From Acanthochromis polyacanthus (Eukaryota; Chordata; Actinopteri; Pomacentridae), in NCBI RefSeq assembly GCF_021347895.1, contig NC_067113.1, forward strand, positions 5,004,251 through 5,068,250: DNA of 64,000 bases, in the 5' to 3' direction. A program made the position numbers and the translations under genes. Numbering within the stretch: the stretch's first letter is position 1; every line of letters begins with the position of its first letter. This document shows positions 5,764-61,422 of this stretch, piece after piece. The notes beneath the pieces were generated by a model, which made no database searches, was not told where the DNA came from, and worked only from the letters and a program-made list of their open reading frames with translations.

Positions 5764-7398
<1,635 letters not shown>

Positions 7399-28200: not shown

Positions 28201-29123
28201 TATGGGGGGGCGCTGGGCGCGCGCGCGCACCTCTCTCCGCCTGGCTGGGTAGGGCCCCGTTGACCGCTCCTCTTAATTCACTTCACCAGCTTCGCACAAT
28301 ACACCTTGTAAATATACACATGGGGCACACAACACATCCCTTGGGGGTGGGTTGTGGGGGGGTGGTGTGGGGGGTGGCGGGGGAGGATGGGGGGGCGGGT
28401 GGTCATGGGGGAGGTGGGGCTGTGGGCCGGTGGGGCGCCGTGGGGGTCTGCTATGGCCTGTTCTGCTGCGCGGGCCTTGGGGCTCTGGCTGTGTCGGCGG
28501 GGGTTGCTCCGGGCTCCTGGGCTGGGTCTCCGCTTGGTAGCTCCTGCAGGGGGGCTGTGTGGACCTCCTTGGGCTGGAGGAGACAGCTCCCTCCTTTTGG
28601 TGGAGGTTTTCATGCATGCCAGACTCACCACACCGGCATCTACCAAAACTCTATTGAGTTTGTTCCTCCGGTCGCTGAGTCAGTGGAGGTTGCTGGGTTA
28701 GTGTCTGTGGATCTCACTCTGCTTTATCTATCCTTCTTGTGGTCTCCTGACAAATCATCATGATCCAGTTGGGATTTTGTCGTATTTGGTGTTTGTGAAG
28801 GGTCTTAGATTTGTAAATGGTTTTAAGGTGTGAATTAAAGAGTACAAACAAATAAAATGTACCTTTTCTCTTAGAACACTGTCTATGCCTCACCTTTCTG
28901 TCTGTCCTGTTTGTTTTATGTTTCACTTGGGTGTGCACAGCCCTCAATGGCATAATGTAGGAAACAGCTTGAAATAAACATGATAGGTTAATTTGCCATG
29001 AGGACAGGTGATGGTCACAGTCACAAAGAAGAAAAACAATTGCACATGAAGCTTAAGCAATGACACCATGGTTGGTTGGTGTCATTTTTGAGTGGACTTG
29101 CAGACAAAAAAAAAAAAAAAAAA
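28201..29123 (+). other. LINE 3' UTR with G-rich tract
   Basis: After the ORF2 remnant comes a (GC)n stretch (28216-28230), then about 130 bases of very G-rich plus-strand DNA (28344-28480) with many runs of three to eight G, then unique sequence and the A tail. A G-rich polypurine tract in the 3' UTR is a known feature of several L1 lineages. Open frames across it on both strands are compositional. Confidence 0.6.
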
Positions 29124-30102
29124 AATTGTGGCAAGGCACAGATCTGGCCAAGGTTACAAAAGAATTTCTGCAGCACTCAAGGTTCTTAAGAGCACAGTGG
29201 CCTCCATAATCCTCAAATGGAAGAAGTTTGGGACGACCACAACTCTTCCTAGACCTGGCCGTCCAGCCAAACTGAGCAATGGTGGGAGAAGAGCCTTGGT
29301 GAGAGAGGTAAAGAAGAACCTAAAGATCACTGTGGCTGAGCTCCAGAGATGCATTTGGGAGATAGGAGAAAGTTCCACAAAGTCAACTATCACTGCAGCC
29401 CTCCACCAGTCGGGGCTTTATGGCAGAGTGGCCCGACGGAAGCCTCTCCTCAGTGCAAGACACATGAAAGCCCGCATAGAGTTTGCCAAAAAACACATGA
29501 AGGACTCCCAGACTATGAGAAATAAGATTCTCTGGTCTGATGAGACAAAGATTGAACTTTTTGGTGTTAATTCTAAGCGGTATGTGTGGAGAAAACCAGG
29601 CACTGCTCATCACCTGCCCAATACATTCCCTACAGTGAAACCTGGCGGTGGGAGCATCATGTTGTGGGGGTGTTTTTCAGTTGCAGGGACAGGACGACCG
29701 GTTGCAATTGAAGGAAGGATGAATGCGGCCAAGTACAGAGATATCCTGGAGGAAAACCTCTTCCAGAGTGCTCAGGACCTCAGACTGGGCCGAAGGTTCA
29801 CCTTTCAACAGGACAATGACCCTAAGCACACAGCTAAAATAACAGAGTGGCTTCAGAACAACTCTGTGACCGTTCTTGACTTGCCCAGCCAGAGCCCTGA
29901 CCTAAACCCAATTGAGCATCTCTGGAGAGACCTCAAAATGGCTGTCCACCAACGTTCACCATCCAACCTGACAGAACTGGAGAGGATCTGCAAGGAAGAA
30001 TGGCAGAGGATCCCCAAATGCAGGTGTGAAAAACTTGTTTTGTCATTCCCAAGAAGACTCATGGCTGTACTAGCTGAAAAGGGTGCTTCTACTCAATACT
30101 GA
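29124..30102 (+). pseudogene. Tc1-B transposase, main part
   Basis: The gene starts at ATG 23223 (MRITRSNELPKELRDRIVA), is cut by the LINE, and continues from 29124 (IVARHRSGQGYKRISAALKV) to the stop at 30102, about 340 residues in all. The paired-like DNA-binding half (GRPAKLSNGGRRAL between subdomains), the GGGS box (KPGGGSIMLWGCF) and the catalytic residues in [22 protein letters not shown] and SPDLNPIEH are present. The spacing between the last two acidic residues is 33, not 34, because one residue is missing in KITEWLQ. With the LINE inside the gene and this deletion the copy should be inactive. The frame is open through the LINE A tail to GTG at 29092 but has no ATG. Confidence 0.85.
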
Positions 30103-44681: not shown

Positions 44682-46031
44682 TTAATCAGCATGGTTAAAA
44701 TATTCGAATAAAGCTGCTCTAACATCACTCCCTTCTTGAGTTCTGTGGTCAGGCAATGGTTGGACAGAAGGCTGAACGTGCACATGTCTGTGTGGGAGCT
44801 CCTCACCAATGGTATCCCCATGTTCCTCACAAATATTGTGAAGTACACAACAGGTCAGTGCCATTTTCTTGCAAAGCTCCAGCTTGCAGTCATTTCTTTT
44901 CAGGAGGCACCTCCATCGTCCTTTCAATCTCCCAAAAGCCATTTCTACCACTGATCGTGCACTCCTCAGCCTGTAGTTGTATGTGTGCTGCTCTGGAGTC
45001 AGTCTGCCAGTGTCAGAAAATGGCTTCATGAGCCACTTCAGCATGGGGTAGGCCAGTTCACCAATAAGGTAATGTCCAACATCACAGCCAGAGATGGTCA
45101 GTTTGTTTTGCCCCAGTAATTGTCCATCACTTAAAATGTTCCACAAATGTGACTGTTTAAGTACTCTAGCATCATGTACACTCCCTGGAAAGCCTACACA
45201 CACGTCCCAGAAAAGCCCTTTGCCATCCACAACTGCCTGCAGAACAATTGAATGCCATCCTTTGCGGTTGAAGTAGTCCTTGGGATATGCTTCTGGTACA
45301 ATAATTGGCAAGTGACTGCCATCTATTGCACCCACACACTGTGGCACTCTCCAACGATTGTTCAAAAAATTGGCCATTTCCACTAGTTTAGTGGAATCAG
45401 GAGTCCTGATGTGTACAGGAAGAAGCACATCGATGACTGCATTCCAAAATTCCTGGACACAGTTGAACACAGTGCTCAGGCCTACTCCGAAAAGATGGCT
45501 GATGGTCCTGTATTCACTGCCTGTTGCCAGTTTCCAGATGGCAATCGCGATCCGCTTTCGGACTGGGACACACAAGCGGTAGTTTGTGTCTTTTTTTGTC
45601 AAGATGTCTCTGGTCCGGTCGCAGATGTACTGAAATGACTCCCGGGACACGCGGAAGTTTTGGACAAACTGTTGCACGCTGAAATCCGGGACAATTGTGT
45701 CCCAGCAGTAGCATGACTGTGGATGTGCCCAGACAACAGGCGATCTCCGCCTCACATTCCGCCTTAACAACATCTGAAAAAATAAACATATGTATTTCAT
45801 CATCTTATTGCTCTTGTAATCAATATAAGTGTAGTCGAAGCTAAGTAGCTAAGCTAACGCTAGCACGTTTACTGTTAAGTATCGAAACATAATTACCTGT
45901 CTTACACGTAATCGCCGGTTAATGTCACGGCGACGCCGGTGGGCGATCGCTATCAGACCGTCATTCTGTTCATGGATCGCAAGAAAGATTAGAACAGCAA
46001 GAAACACCGCTCCTCTAGAGAGGTCCTCCAT
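44682..46031 (-). CDS. PIF/Harbinger (HARBI1-like) transposase
   Basis: Two exons on the minus strand. Exon 1, 46031-45897, begins MEDLSRGAVFLAVLIFLAIH (hydrophobic) and ends RRRRDINRRLRVRQ before ACAG|GTAATT, 45 codons in phase 0. Exon 2, 45773-44682, follows a TTTTTTCAG acceptor, giving about 408 residues. The DDE_4-type core has D near 196 in VGAIDGSHLPI, D near 246 in FPGSVHDARV and E near 322 in SARSVVEMAFGRLKGRW. Conserved flanks are YFNRKGWHSIVLQAVVD and CCVLHNICEEHGD. Upstream, LATGSEYRTISHLFGVGLST is the helix-turn-helix-like part. No stop or frameshift is seen. Length is somewhat above human HARBI1 and normal for fish elements. The family cuts and pastes into TWA with a Myb-like partner, here the convergent gene. 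Confidence 0.85.
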
Positions 46032-50250: not shown

Positions 50251-51560
50251 ACAACATCACCCCCAGGGTCCTCAGAGCATGTGCCGGGCAGCTTGGTGGA
50301 GTCTTTCAGCACCTCTTTAACCTCTCCCTGAGGTTGATGAAGGTGCCCAACCTGTGGAAGACCTCCTGCATCGTCCCGGTACCTAAGAAAGGACGTCCCA
50401 GTGCTCTCAATGACTACAGACCTGTGGCACTGACGTCGCATATCATGAAGACCTTTGAGAGGCTGGTTCTTCAACACCTGAGGACTCTGCTCTCTGCTTT
50501 CTTGGACTTCCTGCAGTTTACATACCAGCAGCACATCAGCGTGGAGGATGCTATCATCTTCCTCACTCACAGGGCCCTGACACATCTGGAGAGGCCTGGG
50601 GGCACCGTGAGAGTCATGTTCTTTGACTTCTCCAGTGCCTTCAACACCATCAGGCCCTGCCTCCTGGGGGAGAAGCTGTTGGAGATGCAACTGCACCCCG
50701 ACATCACAACTTGGATCCTGGACTACCTCACAGGCCAGCCACAGTATGTCAGGGTGGTCGGCTGCATCTCTGAGGTGGTTACAAGCAGCACAGGAGTATC
50801 CCAAGGAACCGTCCTGGCACCCTTCCTCTTCACCCTCTTCATCTCTGATTTCCGGTTCAACTCTGGTTCCTGTCACCTTCAGAAGTTTTCCGATGACTCC
50901 TCCATTGTTGGATGCATTACTGATGATGACGAGGGGGAGTACAGAGGACTGATTGAGAGCTTTATCACGTGGTGTGACAGCAACAACCTGTAGCTCAACA
51001 TCAGCAAAACCAAAGAGGTGATTGTGGACTACCGGAGGAGAAGGAGGGCCCCTCCCCCCATCATCCAGGGGGAGCAAGTGGAGAGGGTGGACTCATATCG
51101 GTACCTTTGGATCCACATCAACAATAAACTGGACTGGTCCCACAACACGGACACCCTCTGAGGAAGGGGCAGAGCAGGTTGTTCTTCCTGAGGAGACTCG
51201 GGTCGTTTGGTGTCTGCAGCAGGTTCCTGAAGACTTTCTGCCGTGGTGTGCTGGTGAGGTGGCAGCAAGACTGGTGAGGTCAACAGGCTCAACAAACTGG
51301 TGAAGAAGGCTGTTGTGGGCCTTCAATTGGACAATTTGGAGACAGTGGCAGAGAGGAGGATCATGGACAAAAATCAGGGAAATGCTGGACAACCCCTCTC
51401 ACCCTCTCCACGACGAGCTGTGGGACATGGGCAGATCATTCAGCCAGTGCATCATCCTACCCAGAAGCAGAACTGAGCGCTTCAGACGCTCCTTTGTGCC
51501 CACCGCCATCAGACTCTTAAACAGCAGCGGAGGCCCCAGTACATCACTGCACTGACCCCC
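50251..51560 (+). pseudogene. L2-A reverse transcriptase and C-terminus
   Basis: The open stretch to 50992 covers most RT motifs: LWKTSCIVPVPKKGRPSALN, DYRPVALTSHIMKTFERLVL, VMFFDFSSAFNTI (motif A), GVSQGTVLAPFLFTLFISDF (motif B region) and HLQKFSDDSSIVG, where the usual F/YADD is FSDD. A TAG follows CDSNNL at 50993. The C-terminal part continues in other frames: VIVDYRRRRRAP, RVDSYRYL, and at 51420-51555 ERFRRSFVPTAIRLLNSSGG. The minus-strand 294-codon frame across the same DNA is an antisense artefact. Such proteins copy LINE RNA at a nicked target. This copy is truncated and interrupted. Confidence 0.8.
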
Positions 51561-55404: not shown

Positions 55405-55409
55405 TCTCT

Positions 55410-56161
55410 TGTGACGGAGCAGCCCCGTCAGCCCACGCAGTAAGCATAAGAGGCTACAGAGCAAACATGTCCACATACACTCAGTACCGTCGATTTTACT
55501 TGCCTGGCCGTTTTTTTTTCTCCCTCTTTGTTTTTCGGTTTTGCGCGGTTGGTTTCGGCGGCCGTCGGGGGTGCACACTCGGCGGCTGTTGGAGGGGTCC
55601 TCCGTTCGTGGTTTTGTCGGGTGGTGTCCGTTGTGGGGTTTCCGTGCTCCGTTCACGGCTTTACTCAGCCAACTTGAGCATACACAACTCTTACGTGGGG
55701 CGTGTAGGGGCGGCATCCCGTGACATTACGTAACTTCCTGGGTTTTGTGTAAAATAATATTATTTTTCGTTGTAGGGGGTTTTGAAGCTTCATTTTGAGT
55801 ATTTTTGTTTATTATGATATTTGTATAAATCCCAAAGTATATTGAGTTTGGTTTGTTTTCTGTGAGTGGAGAAATGACTGAATTTTGTTTCAATTACTTT
55901 GGAGGGAGGGGCTTCTTACTATATAAAGGGGCACTCAACCACACAGAGCAGTGTGTGCTTTTAGGACTGGAACAGTGCACATGGTAGGTGCTTAGAAGAT
56001 GTTTGTGTATATATGTAAATAGGGAATTTTGTAACTTTGGAATTTGTTTTTTTTTTTTTTTGCTGCACATTTTGGATGGATTATACAATAAAGAGCATCA
56101 CCTTAAAAAGGAAACCAGCTGACTAGTCCATAATTTATTTTAAAGGACAGAGCCCACGACA
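55410..56161 (+). repeat. 5' LTR of the Gmr1-like element
   Basis: 752 bp, TG...CA. It matches the 3' LTR except for a 19-bp segment present only in the 3' copy (after 'catacacaac', about 55687), a 3-bp difference in 'aaaataatattattt' and small homopolymer length changes. A TATA-like ACTATATAAAGG at about 55918 and AATAAA at 56087-56092 mark U3, R and U5. Confidence 0.95.
55918..55929 (+). promoter_or_regulatory. TATA box of the Gmr1-like LTR
   Basis: ACTATATAAAGG lies about 170 bases upstream of AATAAA (56087). The same sequence is in the 3' LTR at about 61176. Position and sequence fit the core promoter of the element. Confidence 0.7.
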
Positions 56162-56163
56162 TA

Positions 56164-56182
56164 TGGTGTCAGAAGTGGGATT
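56164..56182 (+). other. Primer binding site, tRNA-Leu type
   Basis: TGGTGTCAGAAGTGGGATT begins two bases after the LTR. It is the complement of the 3' end of vertebrate tRNA-Leu (…CCCACTTCTGACA plus CCA), so reverse transcription should start from tRNA-Leu. It overlaps the region just upstream of the Gag start codon. Confidence 0.8.
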
Positions 56183-57922
56183 ATGGCTAGTCGAAGGAAG
56201 CAAAAAGGTCGCAGATCACATAAATATGAAGAGGAAGACTTTGCTGCTGCAAGGCCGGGCTCATCGGGGAACCCAGATGAAGTATCTTCCAGTCGACCTC
56301 TGGGTGAGCTGGTGTCTATACTGAAAGACTTTTTTGTGGGACAGCAGAAGAGAGATGAGGGCTTATTGGAGGAGCTGCGTGGACTGAAGGCAGCTATGCC
56401 AGGAGCCCAGTCCTCTCCACAGCAAGGTCGAAGACCACCTCCAGGATCTCAGCCCCCACAGCTTCCCCTGGCATCACTCTCTCCAGACGAGATAGCAACG
56501 GCAAGTATGGACAGTGTACGGCGAGGTCAACCAAACCAGGGTATACCAGAGGCTTTCTCCTTCGACCACGCTGACACGGAGGAGGAACGAAGACCAGAAT
56601 GGAGACATTTTAGTGATCCTAAGATTCTCCCTTACCAAACTGGCGAGGACATTGAGAACTACCTCCTGAGATTCAAGCGCATCGCAAAAACATGGCGGTG
56701 GCCAGAGTCAGAGTGGGCATGTCGGCTGGTGCCACTTCTCTCTGGAAAGGCGCTTGAAGCTTATTCGGCAATGGATGAGGACGACGCGAATGATTATCGG
56801 TCGCTGAAGGCGGCGCTGCTCATCAAATTTGACATTTCTCCAGAGACGTACCGCCAGCGTTTCCGGATTTCGACTGTGCCTACCGGGGAAACGCCAACCG
56901 AGACTTATCATCGCCTTAAGGGACTTTACCGACGCTGGGTTCGACCGGATCAACTGTCCAAGGAGGCCATCGGAGAGCTGATCATTCTGGAGCAGCTGCT
57001 GTGTGTCCTTTCTCCAGACATCAGGACCTGGGTCAAGGAGCGTGAACCGGAGGATGGTCTTACAGCTGCAAAATTGGCTTTGCAGTATCAGAACGCCCAT
57101 CGGGGAATTTCGCGCTTCTCCAGTTCCAGTCAGCGTCTACCACCAGGACCTCCAGGACCGTCTGCACCACAGCGACACTTCAGAGGAGTAGCCAGCCAGG
57201 ACAACAGAGGTATTCCCAGTTCTACCACATTCCAGCCAGCTCCTGGTAAGACTATGATCTGCTTCTATTGTCAGCAGTCTGGACATAAAGCGTCAGTGTG
57301 TCCGATGCGTAAGGCTAAACTCACAGGGGCCTGTTATGCTCCTCGTCCTGAAATTGAGCTAGTGGGGAGCCGACAAACGCAGGGAACGGAGAAACCAGTG
57401 GTGGTCAATGGACAGCAAACTGTAGCATTGTTAGACAGTGGTAGTTTTACCTCCCTGGTCAAGAGGAGTCTGGTTCCTGTGAGCACCATAGACTATAGTA
57501 CCAAGACCGACATTGTTTGCGTTCACGGGGATTGTCACGTTTACCCAAAGTCAGAGATCTCAGTTGAGATCAATGGACAACAGTATCTGCTGACAGTAGC
57601 TGTAGTCGATGATCTACCAAAAGATTTAATTCTTGGGACTGATTTTCCTCTGCTAATGGACTTGTTGCAGGGGGGGGAGAGTGACTTTGTTGAGAAGGGG
57701 AGGGGCAAGGTGGCAAGTCCTGTTGTTACCCGGTCTCAGGTTCAGGCTACTGGTCTCCAACCTCTGCCAGACTTGGATGATAGCCTGTTCGAGGGGGGAA
57801 CTAAGGGGCCTCATAAGTCCAAGCGGCAGCGACGCTTTGAAAAAGAACTTGGGGGTGTAGGGCATGATGTCAACGGATTAACGGTAGATGGGTTGTGGGA
57901 GGTGCCGGGGGAACATTGCTAG
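56183..57922 (+). CDS. Gag-protease polyprotein with SCAN-like capsid part
   Basis: 579 residues from the first ATG after the primer binding site. Residues 1-120 are basic then Pro/Gln-rich. Residues about 140-305 form the capsid; the part from about 205 (LKAALLIKFDISPETYRQRF, TYHRLKGLYRRWVRPDQLSK, IILEQLLCVLSPDIRTWVKE) has the helix pattern of the SCAN domain of vertebrate zinc-finger proteins, which is known to derive from Gmr1-like capsids. A CCHC knuckle follows: C360-x2-C363-x4-H368-x4-C373. The retropepsin-like protease has the active-site D418-S-G (VALLDSGSFTSLV) and a second conserved ILGTDF at about 483. There is no internal stop. It would assemble particles and process the polyproteins. 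The end overlaps the next frame by 35 bases. Confidence 0.92.
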   Translation: MASRRKQKGRRSHKYEEEDFAAARPGSSGNPDEVSSSRPLGELVSILKDFFVGQQKRDEGLLEELRGLKAAMPGAQSSPQQGRRPPPGSQPPQLPLASLSPDEIATASMDSVRRGQPNQGIPEAFSFDHADTEEERRPEWRHFSDPKILPYQTGEDIENYLLRFKRIAKTWRWPESEWACRLVPLLSGKALEAYSAMDEDDANDYRSLKAALLIKFDISPETYRQRFRISTVPTGETPTETYHRLKGLYRRWVRPDQLSKEAIGELIILEQLLCVLSPDIRTWVKEREPEDGLTAAKLALQYQNAHRGISRFSSSSQRLPPGPPGPSAPQRHFRGVASQDNRGIPSSTTFQPAPGKTMICFYCQQSGHKASVCPMRKAKLTGACYAPRPEIELVGSRQTQGTEKPVVVNGQQTVALLDSGSFTSLVKRSLVPVSTIDYSTKTDIVCVHGDCHVYPKSEISVEINGQQYLLTVAVVDDLPKDLILGTDFPLLMDLLQGGESDFVEKGRGKVASPVVTRSQVQATGLQPLPDLDDSLFEGGTKGPHKSKRQRRFEKELGGVGHDVNGLTVDGLWEVPGEHC

Positions 57923-60683
57923 CTTGCAGAGGCAGGATGTTTCTTTAAAATCTTTGTATGAGAAAGTGGTGAAGGGCCCGCACTGTTCCTCTTTGGGTCA
58001 GGAACAGTTTGTTTTGGATAATGATGTTCTGTATGCCTGTAATGATGATCGCAAACGTCTTGTGATTCCGGCGACTTGCAGACAGTTAATTATGCACCTT
58101 GCACATACATTCCCATGGGCCGGACATTTGGGTCGCCATAAAACGTTCCTTCGCATTAGCGCACGATTTTTTTGGCCAGGCATGTACACTGATGTACAAA
58201 CATATTGCAGCACATGTCCTGAGTGTCAGTTAACTAGTTGTCCCCGCAAATCTGACAGGGCATTACTCCAGCCGCTACCCATCATCTCTGAGCCGTTCCG
58301 TCGGATCGCTATGGACATCGTCGGGCCACTGCCACGGAGCAGCCGGGGTCACCAGTACATTCTGGTCTTGAGTGACTATGCCACGCGCTTTCCAGAGGCA
58401 TTCCCACTAAGGACAATTACTGCCCCAAGTGTGCTCCGAGCCTTGATCCAGCTCTTCTCGCGAGTCGGAATACCTGAGGAAATAGTAACCGACCAGGGAA
58501 CGAACTTTACATCCCGGTTACTCCATCTGTTCCACAAACAACTAGGTATCACTGCCATTAAAACCACACCGTACCATCCACAAACCGATGGATTAGTGGA
58601 GCGGTTTAACCAGACTTTAAAGAGAATGCTCCGGAAGTTTGTGGATGATTCAGGGAAAGACTGGGATCGCTGGCTCCCGTTCCTGTTGTTTGCTTACAGG
58701 GAGGTGCCCCAGGCATCAACCGGCTTTTCTCCCTTCGAACTTTTGTATGGGTGGGATGTCCAGGGGCCGTTGGATCTATTGACTGCGGTATGGACGTCAC
58801 CGGACCCCAAAGCCAACGAACGAGGAGTTGTACAGTTTGTCCTCCAGATGAGAGACCGGTTGGCTCAGTATCGAGAAGAAGCAAAGGTCAATCTAAAAGA
58901 GGCTCAGCAGAAACAGAAGCTGTGGTACGATAAGCAGGCTCGGACTCGGAACTTTGAGCCGGGCCAAAAAGTTCTGCTTCTACTGCCCTCCTCCAATAGT
59001 AAGCTTTTGGCCAAGTGGCAGGGTCCATATGTCGTCATTCGACGCATGGGACCTGTAACCTATGAGATCCACCACCCCGAGAGAAAGAGGGCTAAACAAA
59101 CGTACCATGTCAATCTGTTAAAGGAATGGAAGGAGCGGGCTGTGTCTGGCCCTGCCCTCCTGCCCCAGGGTGTGGAGGAGGTGGACAAAGAGGATGGTCC
59201 AGATGTAAGACTTATTGCTGAAGTGGAGGGTGACCTTGACCTATCCCACCTCGTTGAGGAGCTAGTCGTAGAGCTTCGACAGCTCTTTGCTGAAATGCCC
59301 TCTTTGTTCTCTGCGACGCCTGGAAAGACAAGGGTGATCGAACACACTATCCGACTTAAAGATACTCGTCCTTTCCGCCAACGGCCCTATCGTGTGCCTC
59401 AAAAGTTGGTGGGGCAGCTGCAGAAAGAAATTGAGGCCATGTTGCAGCTGGGCGTGATTGAGCCATCTAACTCTGAATGGTGCAGCCCAGTTGTGATAGT
59501 GTACAAGAAGGATGGGACACTGCGGATTTGTATTGACTTCCGTAAGCTCAACTCAGTTTCAGAGTTTGACGCCTACCCCATGCCCCGAATTGACGAGCTG
59601 TTGGAACGCATCGGATCAGCGAGATACATCACAACTCTCGACCTATGCAAAGGGTATTGGCAGGTGCCTCTAGACCCCAGCAGCCGTCCTTATACGGCCT
59701 TCCGTACTCCTGCAGGACTCTTCCAGTTTACGGTGATGCCGTTTGGCCTCCACGGAGCACCTGCCACTTTCCAACGGCTCATGGATAAAGTTCTGCAAGG
59801 ATGCGAAGAGTGCAGTGCGGCATATTTAGATGATGTTGTGATCTATAGCCAGACATGGGAGGCACACCTAGGTCACTTGAAGAAGGTCTTGGGGAAGATC
59901 CAGAGTGCGGGCCTCACCCTGAACTTAAAGAAATGTGAATGGGTTCGAGAAGAAGTGAGGTACCTGGGCTACCAGCTTGGGCAGGGCAAGGTAAGACCCC
60001 AAGCTGATAAGGTGGAGGCAATACGGAACTGTCCTCGACCCAGAACCAAGAAAGAGGTGCGGTCTTTCTTGGGTCTTGCTGGGTGGTACAGACGTTTCGT
60101 ACCCCGGTTTGCCACTATTGCTTCTCCACTCACCGCTCTGACCGGTAAAGACCGAAAAAACCCAGTAACCTCGACTAATCAGTGTGAGACGGCCTTTCAG
60201 TCCTTGAAAGAGTCTCTGTGCTCATCTCCTGTTCTCCAAAGTCCAGATTTTACCAAGCGCTTCTTGGTCCAAGTTGATGCGTCTGCAGTTGGGATTGGTG
60301 CGGTTCTGGCTCAAGGTGAACCAGGTGAAGAGCGACCCATTCTCTACTTGAGTAGGAAACTGCTACCGCGGGAGGTCAGGTATTCGGTGGTTGAAAAAGA
60401 GGGGCTTGCTATCAAATGGGCTCTCGAGAGTCTCCGCTACTATCTCCTTGGAAGGGAGTTTGACCTCGAGACGGACCATCGGGCGCTCACCTGGATTCAC
60501 AGCATGAAGGACCATAATAGTCGGCTGACAAGGTGGTATCTGTCCTTGCAGCCATTCAGGTTTGCTGTGCGGTATCGGAAGGGTGCAACCAATGTGGTGG
60601 CTGACTACCTTTCTCGGTTGCCTTACAACCTTGGAGAGGGGGAGGATGGTGTGACGGAGCAGCCCCGTCAGCCCACGCAGTAA
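57888..60683 (+). CDS. Integrase-reverse transcriptase-RNase H polyprotein (Gmr1 order)
   Basis: 931 residues, +1 frame relative to the preceding gene. Integrase comes first: H2C2 finger (H73, H80, C110, C113), core with D143 (AMDIVGPLP), D202 (VTDQGTNF) and E238 (HPQTDGLVERF), 35 residues between the last two, and a GPY-type C-terminal module near 378-415. Reverse transcriptase follows (about 510-690): SEWCSPVVIVYKKDGTLRIC, YWQVPLD, FGLHGAPATFQ and the catalytic Y646-L-D-D. RNase H (about 790-910) has D797, E836 or E838, and D863 (ETDHRALTW). The tail has ADYLSRLP and ends 33 bases into the 3' LTR. No stop or missing catalytic residue is seen, so the element may be competent. The ATG at 57888 directly follows an in-frame TAG. 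Confidence 0.93.
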   Translation: MGCGRCRGNIASLQRQDVSLKSLYEKVVKGPHCSSLGQEQFVLDNDVLYACNDDRKRLVIPATCRQLIMHLAHTFPWAGHLGRHKTFLRISARFFWPGMYTDVQTYCSTCPECQLTSCPRKSDRALLQPLPIISEPFRRIAMDIVGPLPRSSRGHQYILVLSDYATRFPEAFPLRTITAPSVLRALIQLFSRVGIPEEIVTDQGTNFTSRLLHLFHKQLGITAIKTTPYHPQTDGLVERFNQTLKRMLRKFVDDSGKDWDRWLPFLLFAYREVPQASTGFSPFELLYGWDVQGPLDLLTAVWTSPDPKANERGVVQFVLQMRDRLAQYREEAKVNLKEAQQKQKLWYDKQARTRNFEPGQKVLLLLPSSNSKLLAKWQGPYVVIRRMGPVTYEIHHPERKRAKQTYHVNLLKEWKERAVSGPALLPQGVEEVDKEDGPDVRLIAEVEGDLDLSHLVEELVVELRQLFAEMPSLFSATPGKTRVIEHTIRLKDTRPFRQRPYRVPQKLVGQLQKEIEAMLQLGVIEPSNSEWCSPVVIVYKKDGTLRICIDFRKLNSVSEFDAYPMPRIDELLERIGSARYITTLDLCKGYWQVPLDPSSRPYTAFRTPAGLFQFTVMPFGLHGAPATFQRLMDKVLQGCEECSAAYLDDVVIYSQTWEAHLGHLKKVLGKIQSAGLTLNLKKCEWVREEVRYLGYQLGQGKVRPQADKVEAIRNCPRPRTKKEVRSFLGLAGWYRRFVPRFATIASPLTALTGKDRKNPVTSTNQCETAFQSLKESLCSSPVLQSPDFTKRFLVQVDASAVGIGAVLAQGEPGEERPILYLSRKLLPREVRYSVVEKEGLAIKWALESLRYYLLGREFDLETDHRALTWIHSMKDHNSRLTRWYLSLQPFRFAVRYRKGATNVVADYLSRLPYNLGEGEDGVTEQPRQPTQ

Positions 60684-61417
60684 GCATAAGAGGCTACAGA
60701 GCAAACATGTCCACATACACTCAGTACCGTCGATTTTACTTGCCTGGCCGTTTTTTTTTTCTCCCTCTTTGTTTTTCGGTTTTGCGCGGTTGGTTTCGGC
60801 GGCCGTCGGGGGTGCACACTCGGCGGCTGTTGGAGGGGTCCTCCGTTCGTGGTTTTGTCGGGTGGTGTCCGTTGTGGGGTTTCCGTGCTCCGTTCACGGC
60901 TTTACTCAGCCAACTTGAGCATACACAACACTTCCGTATTTATCCGCGTCTTACGTGGGGCGTGTAGGGGCGGCATCCCGTGACATTACGTAACTTCCTG
61001 GGTTTTGTGTAAAATATTATTTTTCGTTGTAGGGGGTTTTGAAGCTTCATTTTGAGTATTTTTGTTTATTATGATATTTGTATAAATCCCAAAGTATATT
61101 GAGTTTGGTTTGTTTTCTGTGAGTGGAGAAATGACTGAATTTTGTTTCAATTACTTTGGAGGGAGGGGCTTCTTACTATATAAAGGGGCACTCAACCACA
61201 CAGAGCAGTGTGTGCTTTTAGGACTGGAACAGTGCACATGGTAGGTGCTTAGAAGATGTTTGTGTATATATGTAAATAGGGAATTTTGTAACTTTGGAAT
61301 TTGTTTTTTTTTTTTTTGCTGCACATTTTGGATGGATTATACAATAAAGAGCATCACCTTAAAAAGGAAACCAGCTGACTAGTCCATAATTTATTTTAAA
61401 GGACAGAGCCCACGACA
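60650..61417 (+). repeat. 3' LTR of the Gmr1-like element
   Basis: 768 bp, nearly identical to the 5' LTR. It contains 19 extra bases (about 60926-60945, 'cttccgtatttatccgcg') that the 5' copy lacks. The polyprotein stop codon lies 33 bases inside this LTR. Confidence 0.95.
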
Positions 61418-61422
61418 TCTCT

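What the first reader, a model, noticed from the sequence alone, without database searches (positions are those of the whole stretch)
55405..61422. Intact, young Gmr1-like Gypsy element carrying the ancestor type of the SCAN domain
The order Gag-protease-integrase-RT-RNase H is read directly from two open frames and is reversed relative to normal Ty3/Gypsy. All catalytic residues are present, both LTRs and the TSD are intact, and the capsid has a SCAN-like helix pattern. Gmr1-like capsids are the known source of the SCAN domain of vertebrate zinc-finger proteins. A complete copy with near-identical LTRs suggests recent activity and offers a template for comparing capsid and SCAN dimer surfaces.
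Basis: partly seen in the sequence, partly recalled or inferred. Interest (0 to 1): 0.85.

Follow-up and report, generated by a model that had tools for sequence, protein, structure and literature searches.

The report
Fish jumping gene with SCAN capsid
This is a young copy of a known kind of fish jumping gene whose shell protein shares ancestry with the SCAN part of vertebrate zinc-finger proteins, but its single long gene reads as broken in this copy, so it is ordinary rather than intact.

Summary
The element is real and well placed: two LTRs (55410-56161, 60650-61417) with 0 substitutions in 748 aligned sites, a 5-base TSD TCTCT, a tRNA-Leu-type primer site, gag-protease, then integrase-RT-RNase H. 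That order is the one known for Gmr1-like Gypsy elements; 116 of 117 listed relatives with all three domains share it. The C-terminal half of the capsid (Gag 220-306) is a SCAN domain by Pfam (E 2.5e-22) and by predicted fold. All of this fits published knowledge. The host is very probably the damselfish Acanthochromis polyacanthus.

The word "intact" is wrong for this copy as assembled. Published fish Gmr elements, 148 listed relatives, and the joint of both other two-LTR copies in the same genome have gag and pol in ONE frame; the window's two ORFs come from a change of frame at that joint. Whether this is a mutation or an assembly length error is open. Three two-LTR copies, one solo LTR and one contig-end piece were found (lower bound). 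Novelty is low. A side observation: a SCAN-bearing Gag of this kind occurs in a crinoid, and a homologous Gag in a sponge.

The parts
55405..55409 (.). target site duplication TCTCT, left copy
   Evidence: sequence
55410..56161 (+). 5' LTR, 752 bases, TG...CA ends; TATATAAA at 55920-55927 and AATAAA at 56087-56092 (motif readings, no test)
56164..56182 (+). primer binding site, complement ends CTTCTGACACCA (tRNA-Leu type; the tRNA assignment is recalled)
   Evidence: sequence
56183..57922 (+). ORF1: Gag with capsid (about 144-308), CCHC knuckle (360-373), aspartic protease (DSG at 418)
56840..57100 (+). SCAN domain = C-terminal capsid domain, Gag residues 220-306
57888..57922 (+). 35-base overlap of the two ORFs, where the single gag-pol frame of the family is interrupted in this copy
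57888..60683 (+). ORF2: integrase (H2C2, DDE core, p58-type C-terminus), reverse transcriptase (YLDD), RNase H; ends 34 bases inside the 3' LTR
60633..60649 (+). purine-rich stretch (one T) next to the 3' LTR, candidate polypurine tract
   Evidence: sequence
60650..61417 (+). 3' LTR, 768 bases
61418..61422 (.). target site duplication TCTCT, right copy
   Evidence: sequence

Best explanation
A recently inserted Gmr1-like Ty3/Gypsy LTR retrotransposon of a damselfish. Copies of this family make one Gag-PR-INT-RT-RH polyprotein from an LTR promoter; the capsid, whose C-terminal half is a SCAN fold, assembles particles; reverse transcription starts at a tRNA-Leu-type site; integrase inserts the copy with 5-base duplications. 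The anatomy and the insertion are shown; particle assembly, tRNA use and transcription are inferred from the family. In the assembled sequence of this copy the gag-pol frame is interrupted at the gag/pol joint, so it would make Gag-PR but no joined Pol, and would move only with help from other copies, if at all.
For: LTRs, TSD, PBS, purine-rich stretch. Domains. Permuted order against Ty3 itself: Ty3 RT-RH 584-1013 then INT 1068-1456; window INT 33-426 and RT-RH 484-915. 116 of 117 listed relatives with all three domains share INT-RT-RH; 3 of the 120 listed lacked a domain hit. SCAN by profile and by model (mean pLDDT 90.9). Gag and pol in one protein in 148 of 239 listed relatives and in one frame at the joint of 2 of 2 other two-LTR copies in the same genome. 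Published fish Gmr1-Gmr4 are listed with a single gag-pol of 1506-1634 aa (PMC11117352 Table 2, passage seen).
Against: No reference Gmr1 sequence was on hand, and the RT tree with two RT-first rows separates the orders only weakly (60/73, long branches). Relatives' proteins may be gene models that bridge breaks, and could not count two-ORF relatives. Transcription, particle formation and movement were not tested.
Confidence: 0.9

Rival explanations
1. The change of frame is an error of the assembly: in the fish itself this copy has one continuous gag-pol frame like its relatives.
For: The three LTR pairs of the family in this assembly differ by 6 substitutions but by 10 gaps, 7 of them of one base, an excess of length differences that long-read errors would give; zero substitutions in the window pair means almost no time for decay; one of the other two-LTR copies also shows a private change of frame, at another place.
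Against: Nothing direct; the 19-base gap between the window LTRs is not a typical read error, one of the three LTR pairs has no gap at all, and real length mutations also occur.
Confidence: 0.4
2. The two ORFs are the working layout: Pol is made by recoding or by re-initiation at the ORF2 start codon.
For: Both ORFs are otherwise clean, ORF2 opens with an ATG, and the overlap is short (35 bases). could not see two-ORF relatives as such.
Against: 148 of 239 listed relatives have both pieces in one protein, both other two-LTR copies are in one frame at the joint, published fish Gmr elements list one gag-pol, and in most of the 45 relatives printed the alignment with ORF2 starts only at residue 8 or 9.
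Confidence: 0.05
3. The INT-before-RT order is an artefact of assembly or rearrangement in an ordinary Gypsy element.
For: None found.
Against: The same order in 116 of 117 listed relatives with all three domains and in a distant relative (43% identity in the best segment) on a contig filed under a bacterial symbiont genome.
Confidence: 0.01

Closest known systems
Gmr1-like Ty3/Gypsy elements of fishes (Gmr1-Gmr4 of Tetraodontiformes, PMC11117352, passages seen)
   Same: element length near 6 kb, LTRs, young copies; that integrase usually lies upstream of RT is stated for the Gmr1 clade in PMC8220671 (passage seen)
   Different: those list one gag-pol of 1506-1634 aa and LTRs of 337-518 bases; here 752/768-base LTRs and a frame interrupted at the gag/pol joint
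Closest protein relatives: P0003 (Acanthochromis polyacanthus), P0004 (unnamed source), P0005 (Mugilogobius chulae)
   Same: pol 99.8, 89.7 and 83.8% identical, gag part 99.5, 78.6 and 59.9%
   Different: gag and pol in one protein; P0003 begins only at Gag 358
SCAN domains of vertebrate zinc-finger proteins (ZNF24, MZF1, PEG3, Zfp206 structures)
   Same: fold and sequence of the capsid C-terminal domain, 29-35% identity over 84-93 residues, rmsd 2.0-4.3
   Different: here part of a two-domain capsid, with no zinc-finger array
Yeast Ty3
   Same: homologous RT-RH and INT
   Different: INT lies after RT-RH

Membership tests
Gmr1-like Gypsy | integrase upstream of RT in a Gypsy-type pol | tested here: met
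Gmr1-like Gypsy | RT and INT group with INT-first elements and not with RT-first ones | tested here: inconclusive
   RT only: rows labelled INT-first on one side of a branch, support 60/73, only two RT-first rows, long branches; no reference Gmr1 row; one row labelled INT-first (P0271) had no INT hit; INT tree not made
Gmr1-like Gypsy | capsid C-terminal domain matches SCAN | tested here: met
LTR retrotransposon | paired LTRs with TG...CA ends, TSD, PBS, purine-rich stretch | tested here: met
Autonomous (intact) copy of the family | one uninterrupted gag-pol frame as in relatives | tested here: not met
   (for the sequence as assembled)
Chromovirus | chromodomain after the integrase | tested here: inconclusive
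   no chromodomain among Pfam matches at E up to 1; INT ends with p58/Tf2-1 SH3-type matches
Domesticated SCAN zinc-finger gene | C2H2 zinc-finger array joined to SCAN | tested here: not met
   no C2H2 match in ORF1 or ORF2 at E up to 1; compare P0310 of a lizard, which has one
Recent activity | transcription and new insertions | not testable with these tools
   no RNA reads or population data on hand

The most novel reading that the evidence does not exclude
The SCAN-type capsid is an old trait of an animal-wide INT-first Gypsy lineage, present before vertebrates: SCAN-bearing Gags of this kind occur in a crinoid (Pfam E 4.4e-24), a weaker SCAN match below the cut-off lies on a contig filed under a bacterial symbiont genome, and a Gag homologous to the window's (without a Pfam SCAN match) is found in a freshwater sponge, so the capture by amniote zinc-finger genes was a late reuse of a very old capsid design.
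Probability: 0.5. Interest if true: 0.4.

Novelty: new member of a known kind. Interest (0 to 1): 0.22.

Why it matters
It gives one more datable fish example of the retrotransposon lineage from which the SCAN domain is held to come, with a confident two-domain capsid model. It also shows that a neat two-ORF reading of a raw sequence can hide a broken single frame, which matters when copies are called intact. The link between Gmr1-like capsids and SCAN is already in print, so the finding itself opens no new question.

Tried and rejected

What is in print: searches. Seen as passages only: PMC6525542, PMC11117352, PMC4592553, PMC4131045, PMC8220671, PMC11011659, PMC3424704. [quoted passage not shown] the 2002 paper naming the Gmr1-like order is recalled. 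I did not search for prior reports of SCAN-type Gags in crinoids or sponges.

Full report
What is there. The window holds an LTR element at 55410-61417 flanked by TCTCT on both sides. The LTRs are 752 and 768 bases; aligned, they differ by no substitution in 748 sites and by gaps of 1, 19, 3 and 1 bases. With 0 of 748, the 95% upper bound on divergence is about 0.004; at assumed rates of 5e-9 to 1e-8 per site and year (recalled) that is under 0.2 to 0.4 million years. The primer site starts two bases after the LTR and its complement is AATCCCACTTCTGACACCA, a tRNA-Leu type end by recall. ORF1 (579 aa) carries capsid, a CCHC knuckle and an aspartic protease; ORF2 (931 aa) carries integrase, RT and RNase H. 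The nine acidic residues expected for DDE (143, 202, 238), RT (648, 649) and RNase H (797, 838, 863, 906; roles recalled) are present and invariant in an alignment of 13 proteins.

Order. Against Ty3 the two blocks are swapped. Of the 120 listed relatives of ORF2, 117 have all three domains by BLAST and 116 of these have INT-RT-RH; the exception, P0022, is a rearranged protein, and three lack a domain hit. The search had 3848 hits and only the best 120 were listed. PMC8220671 (passage) states that in Gmr1 elements integrase usually lies upstream of RT. A tree of RT with two RT-first rows puts the 16 rows labelled INT-first on one side of a branch with weak support, 60/73; long branches meet, and for one of the 16 (P0271) no integrase hit was seen. 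This does not by itself prove membership.

Host and copies. The contig that holds the window is 69,332,575 bases long, the same length as the contig of an Acanthochromis polyacanthus protein (P0144), and the best protein match is from that species at 99.8% in pol; so the host is very probably that damselfish. A search of the 957-Mb genome with window 55405-55805 gave 8 places: three two-LTR copies, one solo LTR with its own duplication GTACC, and one piece at a contig end. The counts are lower bounds. LTR pairs differ by 0 of 748, 1 of 767 and 5 of 756 substitutions, with 4, 0 and 6 gaps; duplications of the other two are ACGTG and CCATG.

The break. In relatives gag runs straight into pol: of 239 listed relatives, 148 match both the gag C-terminal piece and the pol N-terminal piece in one protein, 138 closely adjacent and 10 with a longer spacer; 40 match the gag piece only, 9 the pol piece only and 42 neither. 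Some may be gene models, and since single proteins were examined a two-ORF relative would be hidden among the gag-only or pol-only rows. In the same genome, 701-base stretches around the joint of both other two-LTR copies have gag and pol pieces in the same frame with 100% identity to the window's residues. One of the two shows a change of frame of its own elsewhere in that stretch; the rest of those copies was not examined beyond their LTRs. Published fish Gmr1-4 are listed with a single gag-pol. The window's two ORFs are therefore best read as one gag-pol frame interrupted in their 35-base overlap, not a two-ORF design. Ten gaps against six substitutions in the three LTR pairs make a length error of the assembly a serious rival to a real mutation.

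Wider view. A crinoid protein (Antedon mediterranea, P0224) has a SCAN match at 4.4e-24, with a protease match below the cut-off and an integrase zinc-binding domain behind it. A sponge protein (Ephydatia muelleri, P0309) aligns with the window's Gag at 29% over 372 columns, but with a gap inside the SCAN region and no Pfam SCAN match. A contig filed under a bacterial symbiont genome, probably host contamination (inference), has one 1471-aa frame with integrase and RT in the same order at 43% identity and a SCAN match below the cut-off, E 3.6e-4. This suggests, but does not show, that the SCAN-type capsid is older than vertebrates.

Verdict.

Noticed in passing
P0224, P0242 (Antedon mediterranea); P0309 (Ephydatia muelleri): SCAN-bearing Gmr1-type Gag in a crinoid and a homologous Gag without a Pfam SCAN match in a sponge, outside vertebrates.
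   Followed up: partly
L001:860-5275: A contig filed under a Candidatus Thiodubiliella genome carries a one-frame INT-first Gypsy element, probably contamination from the animal host.
   Followed up: partly
55410-56161 and 60650-61417: The LTR pair differs by a 19-base gap and three short gaps but no substitution, odd for so young a pair.
   Followed up: partly
5983-7035 (-), 29092-30102 (+): Two Tc1-type transposase ORFs with HTH and DDE_3 matches.
   Followed up: no
44682-45803 (-): Long ORF with a DDE_Tnp_4 match, Harbinger type by recall.
   Followed up: no
50334-50993 (+): Reverse transcriptase fragment (RVT_1), probably a LINE.
   Followed up: no
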